Shown one piece after another: positions 2,174 to 30,074 of a DNA stretch of 64,000 nucleotides (its first letter is position 1; each line of letters opens with the position of its first letter). The translations under genes were made by a program, and so were the position numbers. The notes beneath the pieces are model-generated. The model did not search any database. It saw only the letters and a list, made by a program, of their open reading frames with translations, and had not been told where the DNA came from. Origin of the DNA: an uncultured Shimia sp. (GTDB taxonomy: Bacteria > Pseudomonadota > Alphaproteobacteria > Rhodobacterales > Rhodobacteraceae); assembly GCF_947493595.1 (NCBI RefSeq), contig NZ_CANLRL010000001.1, positions 496,001-560,000 on the forward strand. Direction: 5' to 3'.

Positions 2174-4171
<1,998 letters not shown>

Positions 4172-19252: not shown

Positions 19253-19945
19253 TCACTCCCAGACTGTCAGGATCTCTTCCAGAGGTTTTTTGATTTTCGC
19301 CACCGCAGGCACTTGGGCGTCTGCGCGTGCCTTTCCAACGGCAAGGATCATGATTGGCTTTTCCGAGGCCGGGCGGTTCAGCGTGCCTTTGAGGAACTTC
19401 ATCGGGTTGGGCGTGTGGGTCAGCACCGATAGGCCCGCGTGGTGCAGGGCGGCAATCAGGAAGCCGCAAGCGATGCCCACGCTTTCCGGTACGTAGTAGT
19501 TTTTGTAGCGGGTGCCGTCCTCAAACTCACCATAGCGTTGGGCAAAGACCACAATCAGCCAAGGCGCATCGGTCAGATGGGGTTTGTGGTCATTTGTACC
19601 AATTGGTTCCAGCGCTTTGATCCACTCATCCCCTGCGCCGCCATCATAAAACCTGCGTTCTTCTTCCTCGGCTTCGGCACGGATGCGGGCCTTGAGGTCC
19701 GGATTGGAAATCGCCGCAAAGCTCCAAGGTTGGTGGTTGGCGCCAGACGGTGCGCGGCCGGCGGTCTTGATGCAAGTTTCAATGATGTCGCGCGGGATCG
19801 GTGTGGTGTCATAGTCGCGCACGGTGTGGCGCTGTGCCATGACATCAAAAAACGCCTGCGCCGCGGCGCGGGCTTCCGCGTCATCCAAGTCAACATGATC
19901 GGGCAGGGGGATCGGGTCATAGGCGAGGGCGTCGCGGGAAAACAT
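19253..19945 (-). CDS. Nitroreductase-fold flavoprotein, iodotyrosine deiodinase-like
   Basis: A 230-aa FMN enzyme of the nitroreductase superfamily. The FMN-binding start (QRHTVRDYD) and AGRAPSGANHQPWSF are clear. It resembles vertebrate iodotyrosine deiodinase across IACGFLIAALHHAGLSVLTH, TPNPM and LNRPASEKPIMILAVG. E96, Y100 and K121 have the same spacing (4 and 21 residues) as the Glu-Tyr-Lys set that holds the iodotyrosine zwitterion in human IYD. Reductive dehalogenation of halotyrosine is therefore plausible but not proven. ATG 19945 has AAAGGAG upstream; a longer frame upstream is unlikely. Confidence 0.87.
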   Translation of the reverse strand: MFSRDALAYDPIPLPDHVDLDDAEARAAAQAFFDVMAQRHTVRDYDTTPIPRDIIETCIKTAGRAPSGANHQPWSFAAISNPDLKARIRAEAEEEERRFYDGGAGDEWIKALEPIGTNDHKPHLTDAPWLIVVFAQRYGEFEDGTRYKNYYVPESVGIACGFLIAALHHAGLSVLTHTPNPMKFLKGTLNRPASEKPIMILAVGKARADAQVPAVAKIKKPLEEILTVWE

Positions 19946-20016
19946 GGCTGGCTCCTTTAAGTTGCCAGCGAGCTTAGGGATGTGGCGCGGCGGCGCAAGG
20001 GCCGCCGCAACCGAGA

Positions 20017-20454
20017 TCACTCCATGTCGTGCAGATTGGACAGGAAACCGTGCCAGCCCTTGTCGAGCGCCATGACAAGGCCAAAGCCGTCTGCGTCGGT
20101 GGGCAGCCCGGAGTGGATCAATGTCAGGCGGGTGCCGCCGGGGGCCTCAGTAAGTTCCCACTCCACGGTGGTCATGTCGCCGTTCATCGGGCCAACGGTG
20201 AAATCCCACTTCATGTAATCATGTGGGCGGGCCTGCACCACTTTGCCCCAACACATGCGGTCGCCGTCTTTTTGTGAAACCAGCGTGTAGTCTTCGCCCT
20301 CGGCAAGGTCCTTTTCCGCGGGGTGAAACCATTCGTTGAGCAAGTTGGCTTTGGTCAGGAACTCCCAGACGCGGGCCTTGGGTGCGGCCAGAAAGACCGA
20401 TTTGCGAATGGTGGTGTCTTGGGAAAGTTCAGCCATTGTTGTGTCCAGTGTCAT
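20017..20454 (-). CDS. SRPBCC (AHSA1-like) domain protein
   Basis: A 145-aa START-like protein of the Aha1/AHSA1 group (IRKSVFLAAPKARVWEFLTKANLLNEWFHP...GGTRLTLIHSGL). These small lipid- or ligand-pocket proteins often follow an ArsR regulator, as here. ATG 20454 is chosen because AAGGA lies 8 bases upstream; it overlaps the end of the ArsR gene by 26 bases, so the two are co-transcribed. Ligand unknown. Confidence 0.87.
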   Translation of the reverse strand: MTLDTTMAELSQDTTIRKSVFLAAPKARVWEFLTKANLLNEWFHPAEKDLAEGEDYTLVSQKDGDRMCWGKVVQARPHDYMKWDFTVGPMNGDMTTVEWELTEAPGGTRLTLIHSGLPTDADGFGLVMALDKGWHGFLSNLHDME

Positions 20455-23105: not shown

Positions 23106-24491
23106 TCAAGCGGTGACGCAATAGCCGCGGGCGCGATAGGCTTCGGCGATGCGGAAACAGACGCCGCGGAACGTGACTTCGCGGGTCAGAACCTCCGTAT
23201 CCGGCACAGCCCCGTCACGCAGGAACTCTGGGGAGGCCAGAATGATGGTGTGCAGCGCCTCCCCTGAGGTGCCATAGCCAAAATAATCCGCCACCGCGTC
23301 CTCAATGTCGAAAGGGATTTGCGAAAATTCCGGATGTTGCGCCACCATGGTGTTGAGGAATTCGGACCAGATGTTGCCCTGCACACTAAAGATGCGGTTG
23401 GAGTTGCCGGCGGTTTGCGGAGCAAAGGCAGTGGGATGCATGAGGCCGGGCATCAGGTGCAACGCACCGGTAGGTTGCGCCGTCTGGGTGGCGGCTTCGG
23501 ACTGACGGTTCAGATCACACAGGGTGGCAAGGCGCAGATCCAGCCGTTCCATCACCCGATCCATGTGGCACGCGAGAGCACAATCACCGACCGGCCAATC
23601 ATCTCCTTCGCCAGCCATGTGCAGACCCACAGCGTCGCCAGTGTCCGGATCTGTCCAGCAGGCACCGCTGTCACCGGGCAAAGACAAGGCGGCATGCGGG
23701 GCAGCTGCATCTTGGGGCACCAGACGGAAACCGTCGACTTCCACGGATTTTCGACGGCCATCGCAGTTGGTGTGCACCACCTTATAGGTGCCAATACCGT
23801 CCACCCGCGCCCGTGTCAGGCCGGTGGTGCGGCCATATTTGCACAGGATACGGCCAAGCGCGGCCGGGGCGACCCCCGTCATTGGCAGGTTGAGTTGTTT
23901 CAATGTGGGATGCCAAGAAGCGGTGCCGGTCAACGTGGCAAAGGCGGCATCGCCGTGGCGGGACAGCATGGATTTGTTCAGCCGTGCAATAGGCAGATCC
24001 GCGGTGCTGTGGCCGTAGACCAGATTGCTGTCGGCGCCCTCGGGGGAGGACAAGACATGCCAATTGGAGAGAATGCCCGGCTTGCCCGAGGTGCGGTCAA
24101 TGGCAATGGCACCGATGGTGCCGGCGTTGGCGCCGCGGCGTTGGCATGGGCTGCCGGACAGCAAAGTGCCGGCATAGCTGTTTTGGCTGTCGCCTTGATC
24201 GCGGTGGACCTTATAGATGCTGGCCACCACATCCACCGGAAATCCGTTGATGCGGCGCACGATGCGCATGGACGGGGCCAACTCATCTTCGGGCAATTTG
24301 GCATCCACATGCACCCGCAGACAAACTTTGTTGGTGGCCAGACCGCCAACCCGTTTGAAGCCAATATCATAACCGGTCACATCGGCGCGCTCTTGGTACA
24401 TGTCTCGCAGGGCTGCAAGTGCCTTCTGTCGGGCGTCAATGGCAGCGGTTTGGGCCAATGTCTGGGTCACGGTTGAGTGGGGGCGGGCCAT
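23106..24491 (-). CDS. Trypsin-fold serine protease-like protein with novel C-terminus
   Basis: A 461-aa protein without signal peptide. The chymotrypsin-type triad is readable: H145 in ILSNWHVLSS, D181 in RHGDAAFATL and S275 in LPGDSGACW. The layout recalls the plant NAL1-like or bacterial cytosolic trypsin-like group more than secreted HtrA. Residues 1-110 form a separate N-terminal domain (LATNKVCLRVHVDAKLPEDEL). The last 120 residues are an extra domain I do not recognise. It is divergent from the YcaO gene, with 147 bases between starts, and may be its functional partner, for example as a leader-cleaving protease. That is inference. Confidence 0.8.
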   Translation of the reverse strand: MARPHSTVTQTLAQTAAIDARQKALAALRDMYQERADVTGYDIGFKRVGGLATNKVCLRVHVDAKLPEDELAPSMRIVRRINGFPVDVVASIYKVHRDQGDSQNSYAGTLLSGSPCQRRGANAGTIGAIAIDRTSGKPGILSNWHVLSSPEGADSNLVYGHSTADLPIARLNKSMLSRHGDAAFATLTGTASWHPTLKQLNLPMTGVAPAALGRILCKYGRTTGLTRARVDGIGTYKVVHTNCDGRRKSVEVDGFRLVPQDAAAPHAALSLPGDSGACWTDPDTGDAVGLHMAGEGDDWPVGDCALACHMDRVMERLDLRLATLCDLNRQSEAATQTAQPTGALHLMPGLMHPTAFAPQTAGNSNRIFSVQGNIWSEFLNTMVAQHPEFSQIPFDIEDAVADYFGYGTSGEALHTIILASPEFLRDGAVPDTEVLTREVTFRGVCFRIAEAYRARGYCVTA

Positions 24492-24638
24492 GGGGGGCTC
24501 CTTATTTGTCGTCTTTGAAACAAATGTACTGAAGCCAGCGTTATTCTTGCGTGATTTGCCGTCATCGCCTTGTAGTGTTGGCGTTGAGGCGGTGCGTTTT
24601 GCATGTGACGGCGCGTGTTTAGGGAGAATCAGGGCAGA

Positions 24639-25691
24639 ATGTTCAAAGAGTTGCGGGAGTTTGAGCGGCCTTTGAGCGGCCCCCTTGGTGTGCCGGAAGA
24701 GACGCCCATGTGTTGCCTTCCGGTGTTGCGACAGCTGGACTACCTGTTTGTTGGCGTCCCTAGCTCCGTGCCAGCGGTGGTGATCGCTGGCGGTGTTTTA
24801 GCTGATGGCACACCGGTGTCCGGGGCTGGTCGTACGCGGGAGGCAGCTTTGCTGCGTTTGGCAGGGGAAGCTGCGGAACAATTGGGGTTACGCGCGGCGG
24901 TGGCGGAGTTGCCAAGCGATCGCACAATTTATGTTTTTGACTGGGGCGGCAAAGACGTGGGGGTGGTGGATCGGTCCGTGTTGCCGTTGACGGCATCTGA
25001 TACCGCCGGGTTTTCCGAGGGGCTTGCGGCACATACGGATGTGGCACAGGCCCGACTCCATGGCGCGTTGGAGTTGTTTGAGCGGGATGCGGCGGCACAT
25101 TGGTGGGCGGGCGCGACGGCCGCGATAGGCATAACGGACATCGAAGACAGGGTTGTTGACGTGCTTGGCGTGCGCCCAACCCGACAAACGCGGTTGCTGG
25201 ATGTGACGTGTGACACTGGTGTACCAGTGGTTGTTGCGGCGGCGTTTGATGTGACCGGTGCGGGGTTTTGCTTTGGCGCGGCCGCGGGCATGTCGCTGGA
25301 GGTGGCGATGACATCTGCGCTGCGGGAGCTGGGGGCTGCGGAATTTGGTCAGGTGTTGGAGCAATCGCGCGGGGCAAAGCCTGTGGACGACGGCACCGGA
25401 TTGACGGTGAACACCCTGACACTTGAGGTGATGGAAACGCAGATGGTGGCGCAGCGCGTCCCTTTTAAAACGCAGGTTCGGGCGCGCAGGGCACTGGCGC
25501 CAGAGGAGTGGCCAGCGGTTATGCAAGAGAATGAGATTGGTATTGTCGATCTGGGTTGTGTTGCGGGGCAGTTTTGGGCCATCAAAGCTGTGAGCACCGC
25601 ATTGCAGTCGGGGCGGGAAACCTTTGTTTGCCCGCGGTTTCAAGCGGCGCTTTTGGGGAAAACACGACGGACGCAGGGACCTCTGTACTAA
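24639..25691 (+). CDS. YcaO-domain protein
   Basis: A 350-aa protein of the YcaO superfamily, ATP-dependent enzymes that form azolines, thioamides or amidines on peptide backbones. Visible marks are SGAGRTREAALLRLAGEAAE (about 61-80, first nucleotide/Mg motif) and ARLHGALELFERDAAAHWW (about 138-156). LLDVTCDTGVPVVVAAAF and FGAAAGMSLEVAMTSALREL follow. It lacks the C-terminal PxPxP typical of azoline cyclodehydratases and no E1-like or TfuA partner is adjacent, so the reaction is open. Its stop overlaps the start of the SARP regulator by one base (TAATG). ATG 24639 is chosen behind AGGG; GTG 24615 is an alternative. Confidence 0.87.
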   Translation: MFKELREFERPLSGPLGVPEETPMCCLPVLRQLDYLFVGVPSSVPAVVIAGGVLADGTPVSGAGRTREAALLRLAGEAAEQLGLRAAVAELPSDRTIYVFDWGGKDVGVVDRSVLPLTASDTAGFSEGLAAHTDVAQARLHGALELFERDAAAHWWAGATAAIGITDIEDRVVDVLGVRPTRQTRLLDVTCDTGVPVVVAAAFDVTGAGFCFGAAAGMSLEVAMTSALRELGAAEFGQVLEQSRGAKPVDDGTGLTVNTLTLEVMETQMVAQRVPFKTQVRARRALAPEEWPAVMQENEIGIVDLGCVAGQFWAIKAVSTALQSGRETFVCPRFQAALLGKTRRTQGPLY

Positions 25692-27691
25692 TGGAGCGGG
25701 ACCAGACCAATACGGCAGCGCCGGACAGGGCGGTGCAGCAGCTTGAGATTGACGTGGTCGGTGGGTTTCAGGCCCGCTGTGATGGGGCGCGTGTAGCAAT
25801 CAAGAAGAAGAAGGCAGCGGCCATTTTGGTATTGTTGTCACTGTCGCCGGACCTGCGTATGTCGCGGGAGAAATTGCGTGGGGTGCTTTGGCCCGACAGT
25901 TCTGAGACGGCGGCGCAAACCAGCCTGCGCAATGCGGTTTGGGCGTTGAAATCCGCACTGTCTGACGCAGGCTTTGACGGGGTTCTGACGGATCGCAGTG
26001 ACATTTGGTTGGCGCAAGATCAGGTTTTGGTCGATCTCGATCTACTGCTGGAGGCTGCCGATCAAGGGGACATGGCCAAGGTGTTGCGGGTTGATCCGCA
26101 GAAGCTGGCGCAGTTTGGTCGCGATCAGGTGGAGATCAACGACGTGTTTGCCTCCCGTGTCAGCGAAGCGGTGCAGCACGTCAGCGGGTTGATGCGCCAT
26201 CGGCTGAATGTGGCGGCAGACCGCGCAGGAACCGACGAAGAGCGGCTTGAGATTTTGCAGTTTGTCGCGGGGATGGATCCAGCGGATGAAGGTGCGGCGC
26301 GGCGGCTGATTAGGGCTTATTGGAAAAGCGGGCAGATGGCGAATGCGCTGACCGTGTATCAGTCGCTGTGGAGTCTGCTGGATCAGGAGTATGGCGAGGA
26401 GCCATCTGAGGAAACGCAGCAGCTGGTGATCGACATAAAATCACCGGGAAAAACCCAGGCGCCTAAGACCTTGCGGCCGGTAATTGTTGTGGCACAGCCC
26501 AATTATGCACATCTCACCGCTGATCTTGCAGGCGAGGCCGAAGCGCTGCGCCAAGCTTTGTGCGCCAATCTTTCGCGCTTTCGCGAGTGGCAGATTTTTG
26601 ATGCGGCATTGATGGCTGAACATACGCAGGTGGGCGAACCGGAGGCTGCGAGTTATGCGCTGGTGTTACAGCCGCAAGATCGGGGCGACGCATTGGCGTG
26701 CCGCGCGGTGCTGTCCGATCGCGGCACCGGCGAGCTTTTGTGGTCTGAGGCGCTGTCCGATGCGGGGCAGATTGCCCTGACAGAAGGTCCAGGCGCGGCG
26801 GAGCGGTTGGCGGTGGCGCTGAACCTGCACCTATCCGCCTTCAAAGGCCCGTTGATTGCCACAAATACAACCGCGCCAAGCGCCTATGAGCGCTGGGTGG
26901 AGGCGCAGGGACATATCCTGCAATTTACGCTGGAGGGATGGAAGACTGCGGAGGGACTGCTGGACGCATTGATCCGGGATTATCCGGAGTTCAGCCGGGC
27001 GTATTCCAGCCGCGCTTCCATTGAGAATATGCGGCAGATTTCTTTTCCGGGGCTGTACAGTTCACAGGATATGCATGTCGACGGGTTGCGTTTGGCGCGA
27101 CGCGCAATAGAACTTGATCCGATGGACAGCCGGGGGCAGTTGGCCATGGGGTGGTCCGCAGCGATGTCGCGACAGTTTGAGCAGGCGGAATTGGCCTTTG
27201 ATCTGGCGTTTCAATACAACGAAAACGATCCCTGGACGATGACGTCTTCGGCGGTGGGGCTGGCGTTTTGCGATCAGTTGGAGGCCTCCAGCCGATTGCT
27301 GGACTTGCTGTTTAAGCTGAAGTTCCGGTTGCAGCCGTCACATTGGAGTTATGTCGCGGCAACCCGGTTTATGGCCGGGGACTATGAGGGCTGTATTCTG
27401 GCGTCCGAGAAATCCGAGGAGATTTCGCATGACGTGCCCGCCTGGCATGCCTCTGCGCTGGGGTTGGTTGGGCGGTTGCCAGAAGCGGCTTCGGTGGCGC
27501 GGCGTTTTGAAAGTATTGCACGGGCCAACTGGGTTGCGGACGGGGCGCCGGAGCGGGCGGAGATCACGCGGTGGTTGGTGTCAGGTTTTCCGATCCGCAA
27601 TCACAAAGTTTGGCTTGCCCTGCGGGACGGGTTGCGGTTGGCGGACATGCCGGTGCCGGACCTCATTCAAGGCCGCGATATCGTGGTTTAA
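25691..27691 (+). CDS. SARP-type regulator with TolB-like and TPR domains
   Basis: A 666-aa regulator. The N-terminus has an OmpR/SARP winged helix (about 18-110: LSPDLRMSREKLRGVLWPD, SLRNAVWALKSAL). A bacterial transcriptional activation domain follows (about 115-255, ending RLIRAYWKSGQMANALTVYQSLWSLLDQEYGEEPSEETQQL). A TolB/adenylate-cyclase-associated-like region comes next (about 263-395), then TPR-type helices to the end. No membrane segment is seen. It is translationally coupled to the YcaO gene, so it probably controls this cluster. SARP proteins are typical pathway-specific activators in natural-product loci. Confidence 0.87.
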   Translation: MERDQTNTAAPDRAVQQLEIDVVGGFQARCDGARVAIKKKKAAAILVLLSLSPDLRMSREKLRGVLWPDSSETAAQTSLRNAVWALKSALSDAGFDGVLTDRSDIWLAQDQVLVDLDLLLEAADQGDMAKVLRVDPQKLAQFGRDQVEINDVFASRVSEAVQHVSGLMRHRLNVAADRAGTDEERLEILQFVAGMDPADEGAARRLIRAYWKSGQMANALTVYQSLWSLLDQEYGEEPSEETQQLVIDIKSPGKTQAPKTLRPVIVVAQPNYAHLTADLAGEAEALRQALCANLSRFREWQIFDAALMAEHTQVGEPEAASYALVLQPQDRGDALACRAVLSDRGTGELLWSEALSDAGQIALTEGPGAAERLAVALNLHLSAFKGPLIATNTTAPSAYERWVEAQGHILQFTLEGWKTAEGLLDALIRDYPEFSRAYSSRASIENMRQISFPGLYSSQDMHVDGLRLARRAIELDPMDSRGQLAMGWSAAMSRQFEQAELAFDLAFQYNENDPWTMTSSAVGLAFCDQLEASSRLLDLLFKLKFRLQPSHWSYVAATRFMAGDYEGCILASEKSEEISHDVPAWHASALGLVGRLPEAASVARRFESIARANWVADGAPERAEITRWLVSGFPIRNHKVWLALRDGLRLADMPVPDLIQGRDIVV

Positions 27692-27733
27692 AATCAAACC
27701 TATACCGGCATATCCTAAAGTGAGAGTGTCAGG

Positions 27734-28105
27734 CTACACGCATTTGCGCAGTGCGTAATCAGCAATGCGTTTGGAGCGGAAATTGTGCTCTTCTTCTGTC
27801 GGGGTGACCAGCGTGGCATCATAAGCTTCGTCGTAGAAATCCGGCAGCGTGTAGGGGCTGGGTGGCGGCAGGTCGAGGTCATCGGGGTGCGGCAGCATGA
27901 TGCTCACCACCTTCTGGTCCGGCGCGTTGAAGATTTGCAGTGGGTCTGCGTCATTGAACTCTTCGGCAAGTTCGGCGACGTTGCTTGGCACCTGCGCCCG
28001 GAAGTCGCCCACAGTGGCGGGCACCGTGTCGGCATCGCGCGCCCAACCTTGCAGGATTTCTCCCATCTTCAGGTAATTTTTGATTTTGATCTCATATGGA
28101 TCCAT
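27734..28105 (-). CDS. Orphan 123-aa acidic protein next to heme peroxidase
   Basis: A 123-aa soluble acidic protein (starts MDPYEIKIKNYLKMGEILQG; centre PHPDDLDLPPPSPYTLPDFY; ends ALRKCV) with a single Cys at the penultimate residue. GGAGGACAA precedes the start. It lies 30 bases downstream of the peroxidase gene on the same strand, so the two are probably co-transcribed. No family recognised. It could be a peroxidase partner or a substrate of the YcaO enzyme, but it has no obvious Cys/Ser/Thr-rich core peptide. Confidence 0.75.
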   Translation of the reverse strand: MDPYEIKIKNYLKMGEILQGWARDADTVPATVGDFRAQVPSNVAELAEEFNDADPLQIFNAPDQKVVSIMLPHPDDLDLPPPSPYTLPDFYDEAYDATLVTPTEEEHNFRSKRIADYALRKCV

Positions 28106-28135
28106 TGGTTGTCCTCCTTGTTGAGACAGTGGTGG

Positions 28136-29713
28136 TCAGGTGATCTCTGTGGCTGCGATCAGCGTTGGCATGTCGCGGATCGGGGCGGTGCCATAGGCGG
28201 CATGTTCAAGCGCCATTGCGATTTGTTGGTCCGTGTCTGTTGGCGTGTCGTCGGCAAACACGGGTTGAAATGCCACTCCGAGGATCAGGCCTCCAAGTGG
28301 GCCATAGGTCGCGCCGTTGCCGCCGTCGATCTGCGCCTCTAATGCGAGGAAGGTCACAAGCGGCAGATTGGCGGTGATGACGGCTTTGTCGGCATCGGAC
28401 AGTGGCGGTTTGTGGCCTGGGCGCACGGCGGCTTCGAGCGCGGCCATGCCAGCGTCGGCAATGCGGTCATAGTGGGTGGCGGCATCAAATGGCGTGGCGA
28501 TGCCTTGTGCGGTGAGTGCGGCGGCAGCGGATTGGATCAGGTCCTGTACGCGGCCCAGACCAATCCACTTTTCGCGCACAAGATCACGCATGGCGGTGCC
28601 AGCCGGGTAGGTGGCTTTGGTGGGTTTTCCTGCGGTGGGCAAGGTCATGCCATCTGCTGAGTGCGGACCAAAGCGGATCGCCCAGTTGAAGTTGTCTGCC
28701 AAAGGCGCGCCGGGTGCGGTGAAGAATAGGTTCCAGTCAATTTTCCAGTCAATTGGGGTGGGCACCATCCCGGGTTCATGAAGGGAGGAGTGATTGATGA
28801 TCTTGCGCAAATCGACCTCGCCGAGGTCATGATCGTCCACGCCATTGTTCAACATGTATTGCGGGCGCACCATGCTGTGGGCCATGCGAGCGATGCCGTA
28901 AGCAAAGAGGTCGTTGGTCTCGGCGGCGTTGCGCCCCAGAGGTTTCAGCGATGGAGTGCTGTCAAATAACGCCAGCACGTCGGCAGGCATGATGCGTGGG
29001 AGCAGGTCATGGCGCAGGATACGGCGATAAAGGCGCGCAGTGGCGAGGCGGGCCACGCGAGAGCGGTGATGCGGCGGAATTGGGTCTTGGGTGCCGGGCA
29101 TGGGCGTGGTTGCAGTTTGTGCCACAAGCGTGTTGTAGACCGCGTGGAAGAAGGCGGTGAGCTGTGCCAGGATGTTGTTGTCGTCATTGCGCGAGTCCGG
29201 GATCAGCACGTCTGTAAAGGGACCATCAGAGCCCGGGGTGTCCGCGTTGTAGCGGTTGCGAGGCAGGTCGGCAGCGGGAGGCAGGCGATCATCCGACATG
29301 CGGCCTGCCGGGCGGAACTTACCAAGTCGGAGCTGGTGGGTGCCGTCCGTGTGGTTCATGTCAAAAGCATGCGGACAGACAATCGGGCCACCGCCAAACA
29401 GGGTTTCCAGTGCAAGCTTTTCCTGACGTAGGTTTCTGGACCGTCCGCCAATGTCGTCAAAGGCGCGCGGTGCCAGAGAGCTGAACACCAGATCATGACC
29501 GGCGAGTTGGAAGAGGTAGGAGTAGCCGGCGGGCACGCCGAGGTGGCTGCTGTTTGGTTGGTTGAGGAAACCTTTGGCCGCGTTGGTTGAGCTGTTGTTG
29601 TTGTTGAGCAATGTCGCGAGGTAGATGGTCATCTCTTCGGTGAGAGGTGACGGTTGTGATGTGCCGCTGGCTGCGGCAAAGACATCGTCGATTTCGAGGT
29701 CTCGGTGCGACAT
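28136..29713 (-). CDS. Animal-type heme peroxidase family protein
   Basis: A 525-aa protein of the peroxidase-cyclooxygenase superfamily. Active-site landmarks are present: distal His in FQLAGHDL (H73, D74), Arg in LIPDSRNDDNN (R175) and proximal His in FAYGIARMAHSMVRPQYML (H279). There is no signal peptide, membrane helix or RTX repeat, so it seems cytosolic unless co-exported. Bacterial members can oxidise halides or organic substrates. Together with the orphan 123-aa gene and the nearby YcaO/SARP pair it could act on a small molecule or peptide. Confidence 0.87.
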   Translation of the reverse strand: MSHRDLEIDDVFAAASGTSQPSPLTEEMTIYLATLLNNNNSSTNAAKGFLNQPNSSHLGVPAGYSYLFQLAGHDLVFSSLAPRAFDDIGGRSRNLRQEKLALETLFGGGPIVCPHAFDMNHTDGTHQLRLGKFRPAGRMSDDRLPPAADLPRNRYNADTPGSDGPFTDVLIPDSRNDDNNILAQLTAFFHAVYNTLVAQTATTPMPGTQDPIPPHHRSRVARLATARLYRRILRHDLLPRIMPADVLALFDSTPSLKPLGRNAAETNDLFAYGIARMAHSMVRPQYMLNNGVDDHDLGEVDLRKIINHSSLHEPGMVPTPIDWKIDWNLFFTAPGAPLADNFNWAIRFGPHSADGMTLPTAGKPTKATYPAGTAMRDLVREKWIGLGRVQDLIQSAAAALTAQGIATPFDAATHYDRIADAGMAALEAAVRPGHKPPLSDADKAVITANLPLVTFLALEAQIDGGNGATYGPLGGLILGVAFQPVFADDTPTDTDQQIAMALEHAAYGTAPIRDMPTLIAATEIT

Positions 29714-30074
29714 GGCTCAGTTCCTTTTGCTGACTGAAACCACTCTAACGAGAATTTTGAATTTGAGACAAATTCAATCAAATCCACATAAAGGTACGAA
29801 ATTGCGAAGAAAATAAGGGGTGAATGCTCCGGCTAGTGTCACATGTGACGCGGAGACATTAACGGAATCACGATTTGTTAACGCGTCAACCGTGCCAAAT
29901 AGCCATCTAAGAGCGGTCGCTTTTGATAGGCAGCCACCAGCTGTTGGTGAGACGTGTCTCTGGAAACGTGGATCCACCTGCGCGGTTTGTTTCCAAATTG
30001 AGGCTAATGCCCTTGAGGATGCGTCACTGTCTCCAATTTTGCTTCGGTGAGGCGGCCAGTGGCAAAGCTCCGCT
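29714..30074. other. AT-rich gene-free stretch with a perfect palindrome
   Basis: This 361-base gap contains the upstream region of the peroxidase operon. GTCACATGTGAC (29838-29849) is a perfect 12-bp palindrome and a candidate regulator site. A 76-codon frame (GTG 29820 to 30050) with four Cys is open but its coding signal is weak. Confidence 0.4.

What the first reader, a model, noticed from the sequence alone, without database searches (positions are those of the whole stretch)
23106..29713. YcaO-SARP-heme peroxidase-protease block as a candidate new peptide-tailoring system
Within 6.6 kb between tRNA-His and rRNA/housekeeping genes lie a YcaO enzyme coupled (TAATG) to a SARP/BTAD regulator, a divergent trypsin-fold protease, an orphan 123-aa protein and an animal-type heme peroxidase. 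YcaO enzymes modify peptide backbones, and SARP regulators are typical of natural-product loci. Protease plus peroxidase could supply cleavage and oxidation. I know of no described system with this set. No classical precursor, E1-like docking protein or transporter is visible, so the substrate is the key unknown.
Basis: partly seen in the sequence, partly recalled or inferred. Interest (0 to 1): 0.78.

Follow-up and report, generated by a model that had tools for sequence, protein, structure and literature searches.

The report
Peroxidase partner likely modified by YcaO
Four of the five genes noticed here (a peptide-modifying YcaO enzyme, its regulator, a heme peroxidase and a small protein that ends in cysteine plus one residue) occur together in many Alphaproteobacteria, which suggests an undescribed system in which YcaO alters that end cysteine for or with the peroxidase.

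Summary
Four genes form a conserved cassette: YcaO, a SARP/BTAD-TPR regulator, an animal-type heme peroxidase and the 123-aa gene. I found 34 loci with all four, plus three cut by contig ends. The protease is an accessory.

The '123-aa orphan' is the key part. It belongs to an undescribed family, fused to the peroxidase C-terminus in one genome. Conservation peaks at its end, R[VI][GA]DYTxxxC-x, with Cys penultimate in 28 of 28 aligned members (49 of 1150 control frames). It has the lowest dN/dS of the block.

Cassette peroxidases differ from 69 relatives, almost without exception, at both heme-ester positions and at the proximal-His partner. Both transcription units carry an 11-bp-period direct repeat, as expected for a SARP operator.

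Best reading: the tail cysteine is the YcaO substrate (thiazoline most likely), and the peroxidase partners the tail or oxidises it. Co-occurrence is shown; co-regulation is supported; the chemistry is inferred. Eight paper searches naming YcaO returned no description of this set in their listings. No structure could be predicted.

The parts
24639..25691 (+). YcaO enzyme, 350 aa; core gene. Closest solved relatives are the azoline-forming LynD/TruD
   Evidence: PF02624 E 1.8e-21; family profile vs PDB: LynD 6e-46, TruD 4e-44, MusD, MJ1094, 6ci7, E. coli YcaO, McbD; E77, E80, E145, E148, R149 among the invariant positions of 24 rows
25691..27691 (+). SARP-like BTAD/TPR regulator, 666 aa, start codon overlapping the YcaO stop; core gene
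   Evidence: BTAD E 8.6e-11 plus weak TPR matches; found in all 34 full cassette loci and in contig-cut L067 and L187, not in contig-cut L033
27734..28105 (-). 123-aa small protein ending ...RIADYALRKCV; core gene; predicted YcaO substrate and peroxidase partner
   Evidence: 28 aligned members with Y117 and C122 invariant; fused to the peroxidase C-terminus in L036; median omega 0.041, lowest of the block; no Pfam, NCBIfam, PHROGs or PDB family at useful E-values
28136..29713 (-). animal-type heme peroxidase, 525 aa; core gene, upstream of and co-directional with the small gene (30-bp gap)
   Evidence: family profile hits lactoperoxidase 8s6c E 3e-9; Q69, H73, R175, H279 kept; G72, D178 and D377 stand where non-cassette relatives have D, E and N
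24539..24556 (-). predicted operator AATCACG-N6-TAACG (TMACG direct repeat, 11-bp period) between protease and YcaO
   Evidence: present in all 6 genus genomes
29866..29883 (+). second copy of the same predicted operator, upstream of the peroxidase
   Evidence: present in all 6 genus genomes; enrichment in other cassette loci
23106..24491 (-). trypsin-like protease candidate, 461 aa; accessory, not part of the four-gene core
   Evidence: Trypsin_2 E 0.091, below cut-off; homologue in 8 of 31 cassette loci; present without the core in G016

Best explanation
This is a four-gene modification cassette, probably SARP-controlled. Shown here: YcaO, SARP, peroxidase and the small protein co-occur, stay linked through rearrangements, are present or absent together in the genus (small gene and SARP checked there at the locus), and share an operator-like repeat in the genus and in part of the other loci. 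Inferred: the small protein is a folded carrier whose C-terminal tail, R[VI][GA]DY..xC-x, enters the YcaO active site; with ATP, YcaO cyclises the penultimate cysteine onto the preceding amide to a thiazoline (other YcaO chemistry possible). The small protein docks on the peroxidase (they are one polypeptide in L036) and brings the modified tail to an altered heme pocket, where peroxide-driven oxidation completes it (thiazoline to thiazole, or a cross-link) or where it serves as a built-in redox group. No FMN dehydrogenase, E1-like docking protein or exporter is common to the loci, so the peroxidase would take the oxidase place and the product would stay protein-bound in the cell.
For: Linkage: of 80 peroxidase loci 17 have the small gene, 17 of those 17 SARP, 16 of 17 YcaO (one contig-cut), 0 of the other 63 small gene or YcaO. 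Searching with the small family alone (five draws) added G508, G645, G381, G799, G1003 and G1018; all six have peroxidase and SARP, five have YcaO (about 12 kb away in G381), and G799 is cut by the contig end. Tail: Cys penultimate in 28 of 28 vs 49 of 1150 frames. Fusion in L036. No conserved short ORF in the intergenic stretches. YcaO nearest to azoline formers, Glu/Arg motifs kept. Peroxidase pocket differs as a group; on a quick tree the label needs 2 changes, one of them contig-cut L033. Shared repeat. In G016 the four core genes are missing from the site where the protease stays. Distances of the four proteins correlate, rho 0.54-0.69, 0 of 999 permutations as high.
Against: No modification was measured. 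The small protein is longer, and its tail more conserved, than a typical RiPP core. YcaO is the fastest-evolving gene (median omega 0.245) while its supposed substrate is nearly frozen. L027/L028 tails keep the Cys but not DY. L036, the fusion, has lost the catalytic Arg (F) and D173 (N). 18 of 28 other cassette loci show no operator match near a peroxidase or YcaO start. Neighbour recurrence was tested by blastp on frames of 70 codons or more, so short or very diverged partners outside the genus could be missed. No fold or complex could be predicted.
Confidence: 0.58

Rival explanations
1. A RiPP natural product: the small protein is a long-leader precursor, the tail is cut off after YcaO and peroxidase tailoring, and a small peptide is released; the protease (where present) does the cutting.
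For: YcaO and SARP are typical of such loci (established knowledge); long structured leaders that bind an azoline-forming YcaO exist (PMC12455567, abstract read). A protease homologue sits beside YcaO in three lineages (window genus, L029, L073).
Against: No transporter or protease is common to the loci; the protease is in 8 of 31 cassette loci and stays without the core in G016; the tail is conserved rather than variable; the whole small protein is strongly constrained; fusion to the peroxidase makes release less likely.
Confidence: 0.15
2. YcaO modifies the peroxidase itself (for example a backbone thioamide near the heme, as YcaO does on MCR and uL16) and the small protein is a chaperone or docking factor.
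For: YcaO enzymes that act on folded proteins are known (PMC13063428, abstract and introduction read). The cassette peroxidase pocket differs as a group. YcaO accompanies this peroxidase subfamily wherever the contig allows.
Against: Does not explain a cysteine exactly one residue from the stop in 28 of 28. No TfuA-like partner was seen among recurrent neighbours. YcaO is closer to LynD/TruD than to MJ1094 or E. coli YcaO by profile score.
Confidence: 0.12
3. The tail cysteine is an unmodified redox thiol (electron entry, peroxide resolving or heme ligand) of a peroxidase subunit; YcaO modifies something else in the same regulon.
For: Cys next to a peroxidase is a natural redox pair; YcaO is the most loosely constrained gene and its position relative to the others varies.
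Against: YcaO was found in each cassette whose contig is long enough and its Glu/Arg motifs are invariant in 24 rows, so it has a job in the system; no other substrate candidate was found.
Confidence: 0.1
4. Chance adjacency of unrelated genes downstream of a tRNA gene.
For: The block sits just after tRNA-His, and in three genus genomes without it (G011, G003, G024, of five sites fetched) tRNA-His lies next to the gene that flanks the block in the window.
Against: Same four genes in many families at different places and in different orders, with correlated distances and a shared upstream repeat in part of the loci.
Confidence: 0.02

Closest known systems
Azol(in)e-forming YcaO systems (TOMM/LAP, cyanobactin LynD/TruD)
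   Same: YcaO with conserved Glu and Arg motifs; cassette profile scores best against LynD and TruD; a Cys as the candidate modified residue
   Different: No fused second domain in the three YcaO tested by Pfam; no docking protein, FMN dehydrogenase or transporter common to the loci; one universal Cys at a protein C-terminus instead of a variable Cys/Ser/Thr core; a heme peroxidase instead
YcaO enzymes acting on folded proteins (MCR, uL16 thioamidation)
   Same: Substrate would be a conserved folded protein rather than a peptide; stand-alone YcaO
   Different: Dedicated cassette and regulator; tail at the extreme C-terminus; sequence nearer to azoline formers; no sulfur-donor partner seen
NHLP/Nif11-type RiPPs with long structured leaders
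   Same: Protein-sized leader-like region before a C-terminus that may be modified; reported YcaO-NHLP protein/protein engagement (PMC12455567, abstract)
   Different: No member matches a Pfam model below E 0.03 (28 scanned) or an NCBIfam model at cut-off (window, L073, L094, L112, L029 members scanned); the tail is conserved; fused to an enzyme in one genome
Animal heme peroxidases (peroxidase-cyclooxygenase superfamily)
   Same: Distal Gln/His, catalytic Arg and proximal His kept
   Different: The Asp and Glu that form the heme esters in mammalian enzymes (Asp94, Glu242; passages of PMC3533774) are replaced in 33 of 33 and 32 of 33, and the Asn421-equivalent is Asp or Thr in 33 of 33
SARP regulators of Streptomyces
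   Same: BTAD/TPR protein; direct repeats with an 11-bp unit upstream of target genes, called the classical SARP spacing (passages of PMC10972967)
   Different: Gram-negative hosts; the two members L027 and L028 carry an adenylate/guanylate cyclase domain; binding not tested

Membership tests
TOMM/LAP (azole-forming RiPP) cluster | YcaO cyclodehydratase | tested here: met
TOMM/LAP (azole-forming RiPP) cluster | E1-like/ocin-ThiF domain fused to YcaO | tested here: not met
   only PF02624 above cut-off in the window, L094 and L112 YcaO
TOMM/LAP (azole-forming RiPP) cluster | separate E1-like/ocin-ThiF gene | tested here: inconclusive
   none common to 27 loci by blastp recurrence and none annotated within the 17 kb of the Paroceanicella locus; flanking genes of the other loci were not scanned against Pfam
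TOMM/LAP (azole-forming RiPP) cluster | SagB-type FMN dehydrogenase | tested here: inconclusive
   none common to the loci by recurrence and none annotated; the window nitroreductase 19253-20020 is best matched by BluB below cut-off and SagB is not among its 8 listed NCBIfam matches
TOMM/LAP (azole-forming RiPP) cluster | precursor peptide with variable Cys/Ser/Thr-rich core | tested here: not met
   candidate has one universal Cys and a conserved tail; no conserved short ORF in three intergenic stretches of six genus genomes
TOMM/LAP (azole-forming RiPP) cluster | azole/azoline in the product | not testable with these tools
   needs mass spectrometry
TfuA-YcaO thioamidation system | adjacent TfuA gene | tested here: inconclusive
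   no such recurrent neighbour in 27 loci (recurrence only) and none annotated; no TfuA model was searched
Animal heme peroxidase | distal Gln/His, catalytic Arg, proximal His | tested here: met
   33/33, 33/33, 32/33, 33/33; profile hits to LPO/MPO
Animal heme peroxidase | Asp and Glu for covalent heme, Asn partner of proximal His (mammalian type) | tested here: not met
   D 0/33, E 1/33, N 0/33 against 68/69 for each in non-cassette relatives
Animal heme peroxidase | heme binding and peroxidase activity | not testable with these tools
   needs protein
SARP regulator | BTAD domain | tested here: met
   window and L112 clearly, L028 above and L027 just below the cut-off
SARP regulator | winged-helix DNA-binding domain | tested here: inconclusive
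   Trans_reg_C only weak and only in L112 of four tested (E 0.005)
SARP regulator | direct repeats with 11-bp unit upstream of targets | tested here: met
   AATCACG-N6-TAACG at both units in 6 of 6 genus genomes; <=1 mismatch near a peroxidase or YcaO start in 10 of 28 other cassette loci, none near in 18; binding untested
Anti-phage defence system | match to a known defence protein family | tested here: not met
   0 of 5 window proteins match PADLOC at E 0.01

The most novel reading that the evidence does not exclude
YcaO builds a sulfur heterocycle on the C-terminal Cys-x tail of a peroxidase subunit, and this protein-derived group is a permanent cofactor or heme-contacting element of a heme peroxidase that lacks the residues for ester links to heme. 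That would be a protein-made redox cofactor from YcaO chemistry, and a further YcaO acting on a folded protein besides those on MCR and uL16.
Probability: 0.25. Interest if true: 0.93.

Novelty: new variant of a known kind. Interest (0 to 1): 0.78.

Why it matters
YcaO enzymes are well studied on peptides; according to the introduction of PMC13063428, backbone thioamides in proteins are characterised only for MCR and uL16. Here a dedicated cassette points to a probably folded protein with one defined candidate residue, and couples YcaO to a heme peroxidase, an enzyme type for which a search of YcaO with 'heme peroxidase' returned no paper. It gives a directly testable substrate (a C-terminal Cys-x), a testable partner (fusion in one genome) and a testable operator, and suggests a role for a group of bacterial animal-type peroxidases with altered heme pockets.

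Tried and rejected
Rejected: chance adjacency of the four core genes; the protease as a core part; phage or defence origin (PADLOC: 0 of 5 window proteins; PHROGs: 0 of 4 proteins; both at E 0.01). The nitroreductase at 19253-20020 as a TOMM dehydrogenase: nearest BluB, below cut-off. A palindrome CACATGTGAC: 7 matches at <=1 mismatch against 5.2 expected, so dropped as a motif, although largely conserved upstream of the peroxidase. A hidden short precursor: 23 of 23 ORFs of 12 codons or more in three intergenic stretches of the window have a counterpart scoring half of self in at most 1 of 5 genus genomes.

Led nowhere: a mixed alignment of fused and separate proteins for structure prediction put peroxidase tails into the small domain. 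The small family has no PDB relative (best E 0.82). Literature: ten searches, eight of them with YcaO, one on SARP/TPR, one on myeloperoxidase residues. YcaO with 'heme peroxidase' gave 0 papers; YcaO with Alphaproteobacteria and peroxidase gave 1, whose passages concern other genes. The others, with looser conditions, found 15 to 1,405 papers, of which I saw only the 10 to 25 listed. The terms peroxidase and SARP do not occur in the held main text of PMC4603692. The library is open-access only, so absence there is weak evidence.

Limits: the genome-contig scan kept 80 of 480 relatives, so this is not a census. Only 38 of the 63 non-cassette loci have at least 19 kb. In L068 the small gene sits beside a second peroxidase, not the one that brought the locus in. 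The label on the peroxidase tree changes essentially once, so the 33 versus 69 residue counts are not independent, and the tree is a quick one with long branches flagged. The operator motif was derived from the two window sites, so only the other genera test it; in dinucleotide shuffles 2 of 100 reach two matches at <=1 mismatch in 64 kb. Related loci (L105/L124, L034/L049) inflate the operator statistics, and L097 and L068 hold a second peroxidase whose start was counted too. The 27 loci of the distance test were picked as full cassettes. The 28-row tail count includes four near-identical genus rows. The small-family profile was built from loci picked by context, but the distance of the Cys to the stop codon is not something a profile can force.
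Full report
CHECK. YcaO and SARP are firm by Pfam. The peroxidase is too diverged for a single-sequence hit, but an alignment with ten relatives shows the heme-peroxidase core, 5 of 5 diverged relatives match PF03098 (4 above cut-off; L036 just under it and L112 above), and the profile finds lactoperoxidase and myeloperoxidase. The protease is only a weak trypsin-like match. No rRNA was found in the window.

THE GENUS. The orthologous YcaO (60-67% identity) is in 6 of 25 genus genomes, the window's included, and a peroxidase of 83-88% identity in the same 6; the five genes are present in the same arrangement in all 6. A seventh genome, G023, has a diverged cassette (L028), found by context and missed by the peroxidase search. 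G011 has only a distant peroxidase, not examined. Of five sites fetched from genomes without the orthologous YcaO, three (G011, G003, G024) have tRNA-His next to the gene that flanks the block in the window, G004 showed no tRNA in the stretch, and G016 keeps the protease after tRNA-His but shows none of the four core genes there, nor YcaO or peroxidase anywhere in the genome at the limits used. So the core was probably lost together and the protease is separable. Median omega over 15 pairs: small gene 0.041, SARP 0.069, peroxidase 0.075, protease 0.096, YcaO 0.245. In three intergenic stretches no short ORF of the window has a counterpart scoring half of self in more than 1 of the 5 other genomes.

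BEYOND THE GENUS. A scan of one genome per species for peroxidase relatives gave 480 confirmed places, of which 80 were kept. A uniform profile scan found the small gene in 17 of the 80, the SARP in all 17 and YcaO in 16 (L067 is cut by its contig end); 0 of the other 63 show the small gene or YcaO, and two (L090, L113) show SARP matches. Loci with all four genes: 31 (recounted; L047 not counted, being the genome of L034) plus L147, L188 and L189, 34 in all; L033, L067 and L187 are cut by contig ends. Named hosts include Gemmobacter, Stappia, Thalassobaculum, Inquilinus, Mesorhizobium, Oricola and Poseidonocella and a Paroceanicella plasmid, where the record annotates peroxidase - hypothetical - hypothetical - YcaO-like. 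Searching with the small family alone gave 3 of 385 class genomes, 7 of 384 family genomes, 2 of 18, 1 of 23 and 3 of 239 phylum genomes; the window's own genome is one of the hits, and G508 and G645 are hits again. Six of these were new and each has peroxidase and SARP; YcaO is seen in five, G799 being cut. G381, at first an exception, has YcaO and SARP about 12 kb away, and its peroxidase lies on the opposite strand to the small gene. In the phylum draw the family was seen only in the window's own class.

ORDER. The usual order is peroxidase, small gene, then SARP and YcaO on the opposite strand; YcaO has moved or turned in L027, L028, L029, L034/L048, L037, L061 and L094, and in L147 it is distant. 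No further gene family is common to the loci: histidine-kinase or response-regulator frames in 9 of 27, ABC-transporter-like frames in 4 and a LysR-like gene in 4, at scattered places (names of these partly recalled from sequence).

THE SMALL PROTEIN. In 28 aligned members only Tyr117 and Cys122 (window numbering) are invariant, with P29, P72, R113 and D116 nearly so. Two more members, L027 and L028, left out of that alignment, keep the Cys but not DY. Cys is the last but one residue in 28 of 28; in 1150 open frames of at least 150 codons from 24 cassette loci it is so in 49. In L036 the domain is the C-terminal part of a 663-residue peroxidase frame. No curated family describes it: 28 members scanned against Pfam gave two single chance-level matches; NCBIfam gave none at cut-off for the five scanned; PHROGs none for two; PDB none.

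YCAO. In 24 rows E77, E80, E145, E148 and R149 are among the invariant positions; the profile is nearest LynD (6e-46) and TruD (4e-44), then MusD, MJ1094, 6ci7 and E. coli YcaO. Reading this as azoline chemistry is inference.

PEROXIDASE. In a quick tree of 102 rows the 69 non-cassette rows other than L033 form one part; the label needs 2 changes against 27.4 for shuffles, and L033 is contig-cut with YcaO present. Distal Gln69 and His73, Arg175 (32 of 33) and proximal His279 are kept. Position 72 is Asp in 68 of 69 non-cassette and 0 of 33 cassette rows; 178 is Glu in 68 of 69 and 1 of 33; 377 is Asn in 68 of 69 and 0 of 33 (Asp 26, Thr 7) (L033 counted with the cassette rows). By the passages read in PMC3533774 these would correspond to Asp94 and Glu242, the heme esters, and Asn421, partner of the proximal His; the printed alignment to lactoperoxidase covers the Arg region and a short distal piece, and the match of 377 to Asn421 is my motif reading. 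The cassette peroxidases are therefore a group with a different heme setting. L036 lacks the catalytic Arg.

REGULATION. AATCACG-N6-TAACG, a motif I derived from the two sites, occurs twice in the 64-kb window, before YcaO and before the peroxidase, and at both places in all 6 genus genomes. In 28 other cassette loci there are 17 matches with at most one mismatch in 507 kb against 4 in 1013 kb of 63 non-cassette loci; 14 of the 17 lie near a peroxidase or YcaO frame start, in 10 of 28 loci, against 1 near the peroxidase in 63 non-cassette loci, and 20 shuffled motifs gave 0 or 1. All 17 printed matches read T[CA]ACG-N6-T[CA]ACG, an 11-bp repeat, the classical SARP unit (PMC10972967, passages). 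18 of the 28 loci show none near a start. That the SARP binds it is inference.

MECHANISM. The cassette needs a substrate for YcaO. The small protein is the only conserved candidate found; it has one universal cysteine placed where a flexible tail could reach an active site, and it is physically tied to the peroxidase in one genome. I therefore propose that YcaO acts on that cysteine and that the peroxidase uses or oxidises the product. The tail being frozen and the carrier constrained argue for a protein-bound function rather than a released peptide. None of the chemistry is shown.

VERDICT. The four-gene unit is well supported. The substrate assignment is likely but unproved. I rate it a new variant of a known kind: YcaO-dependent modification, with a new substrate family and a heme peroxidase partner.

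Noticed in passing
L179/L174 (G016), L180 (G021), L181 (G010): In these genomes about 9 kb with large ORFs (about 790-825, 1630 and 577 aa; the middle one split in two frames in L180) lies between the protease or cassette and the pseudouridine synthase gene; the downstream side of tRNA-His looks like an insertion hot spot.
   Followed up: partly
L148 4777-8997 + (G381): A 1407-codon frame with a C-terminal YcaO domain lies next to another SARP-like gene (2438-4114 -), suggesting SARP-YcaO pairing in a second, different YcaO system.
   Followed up: no
L030 and L031 (G003, G024, same genus): About 780-codon YcaO frames without any other cassette gene in the fetched stretch: a separate YcaO system in the same genus.
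   Followed up: partly
L027 8741-11527 +, L028 10627-13104 +: The cassette regulator carries an N-terminal adenylate/guanylate cyclase domain (PF00211) before the BTAD part.
   Followed up: yes
L068 8974-10599 + and L097 6506-8356 -: A second peroxidase of the non-cassette type sits beside the cassette.
   Followed up: no
window 29836-29850: Palindromic TGTCACATGTGA upstream of the peroxidase is largely conserved in the genus, but its 10-mer is not more frequent in the window than chance.
   Followed up: partly
L046 (G011): A distant heme peroxidase (30% identity) in a genus member without the orthologous YcaO; not examined.
   Followed up: no
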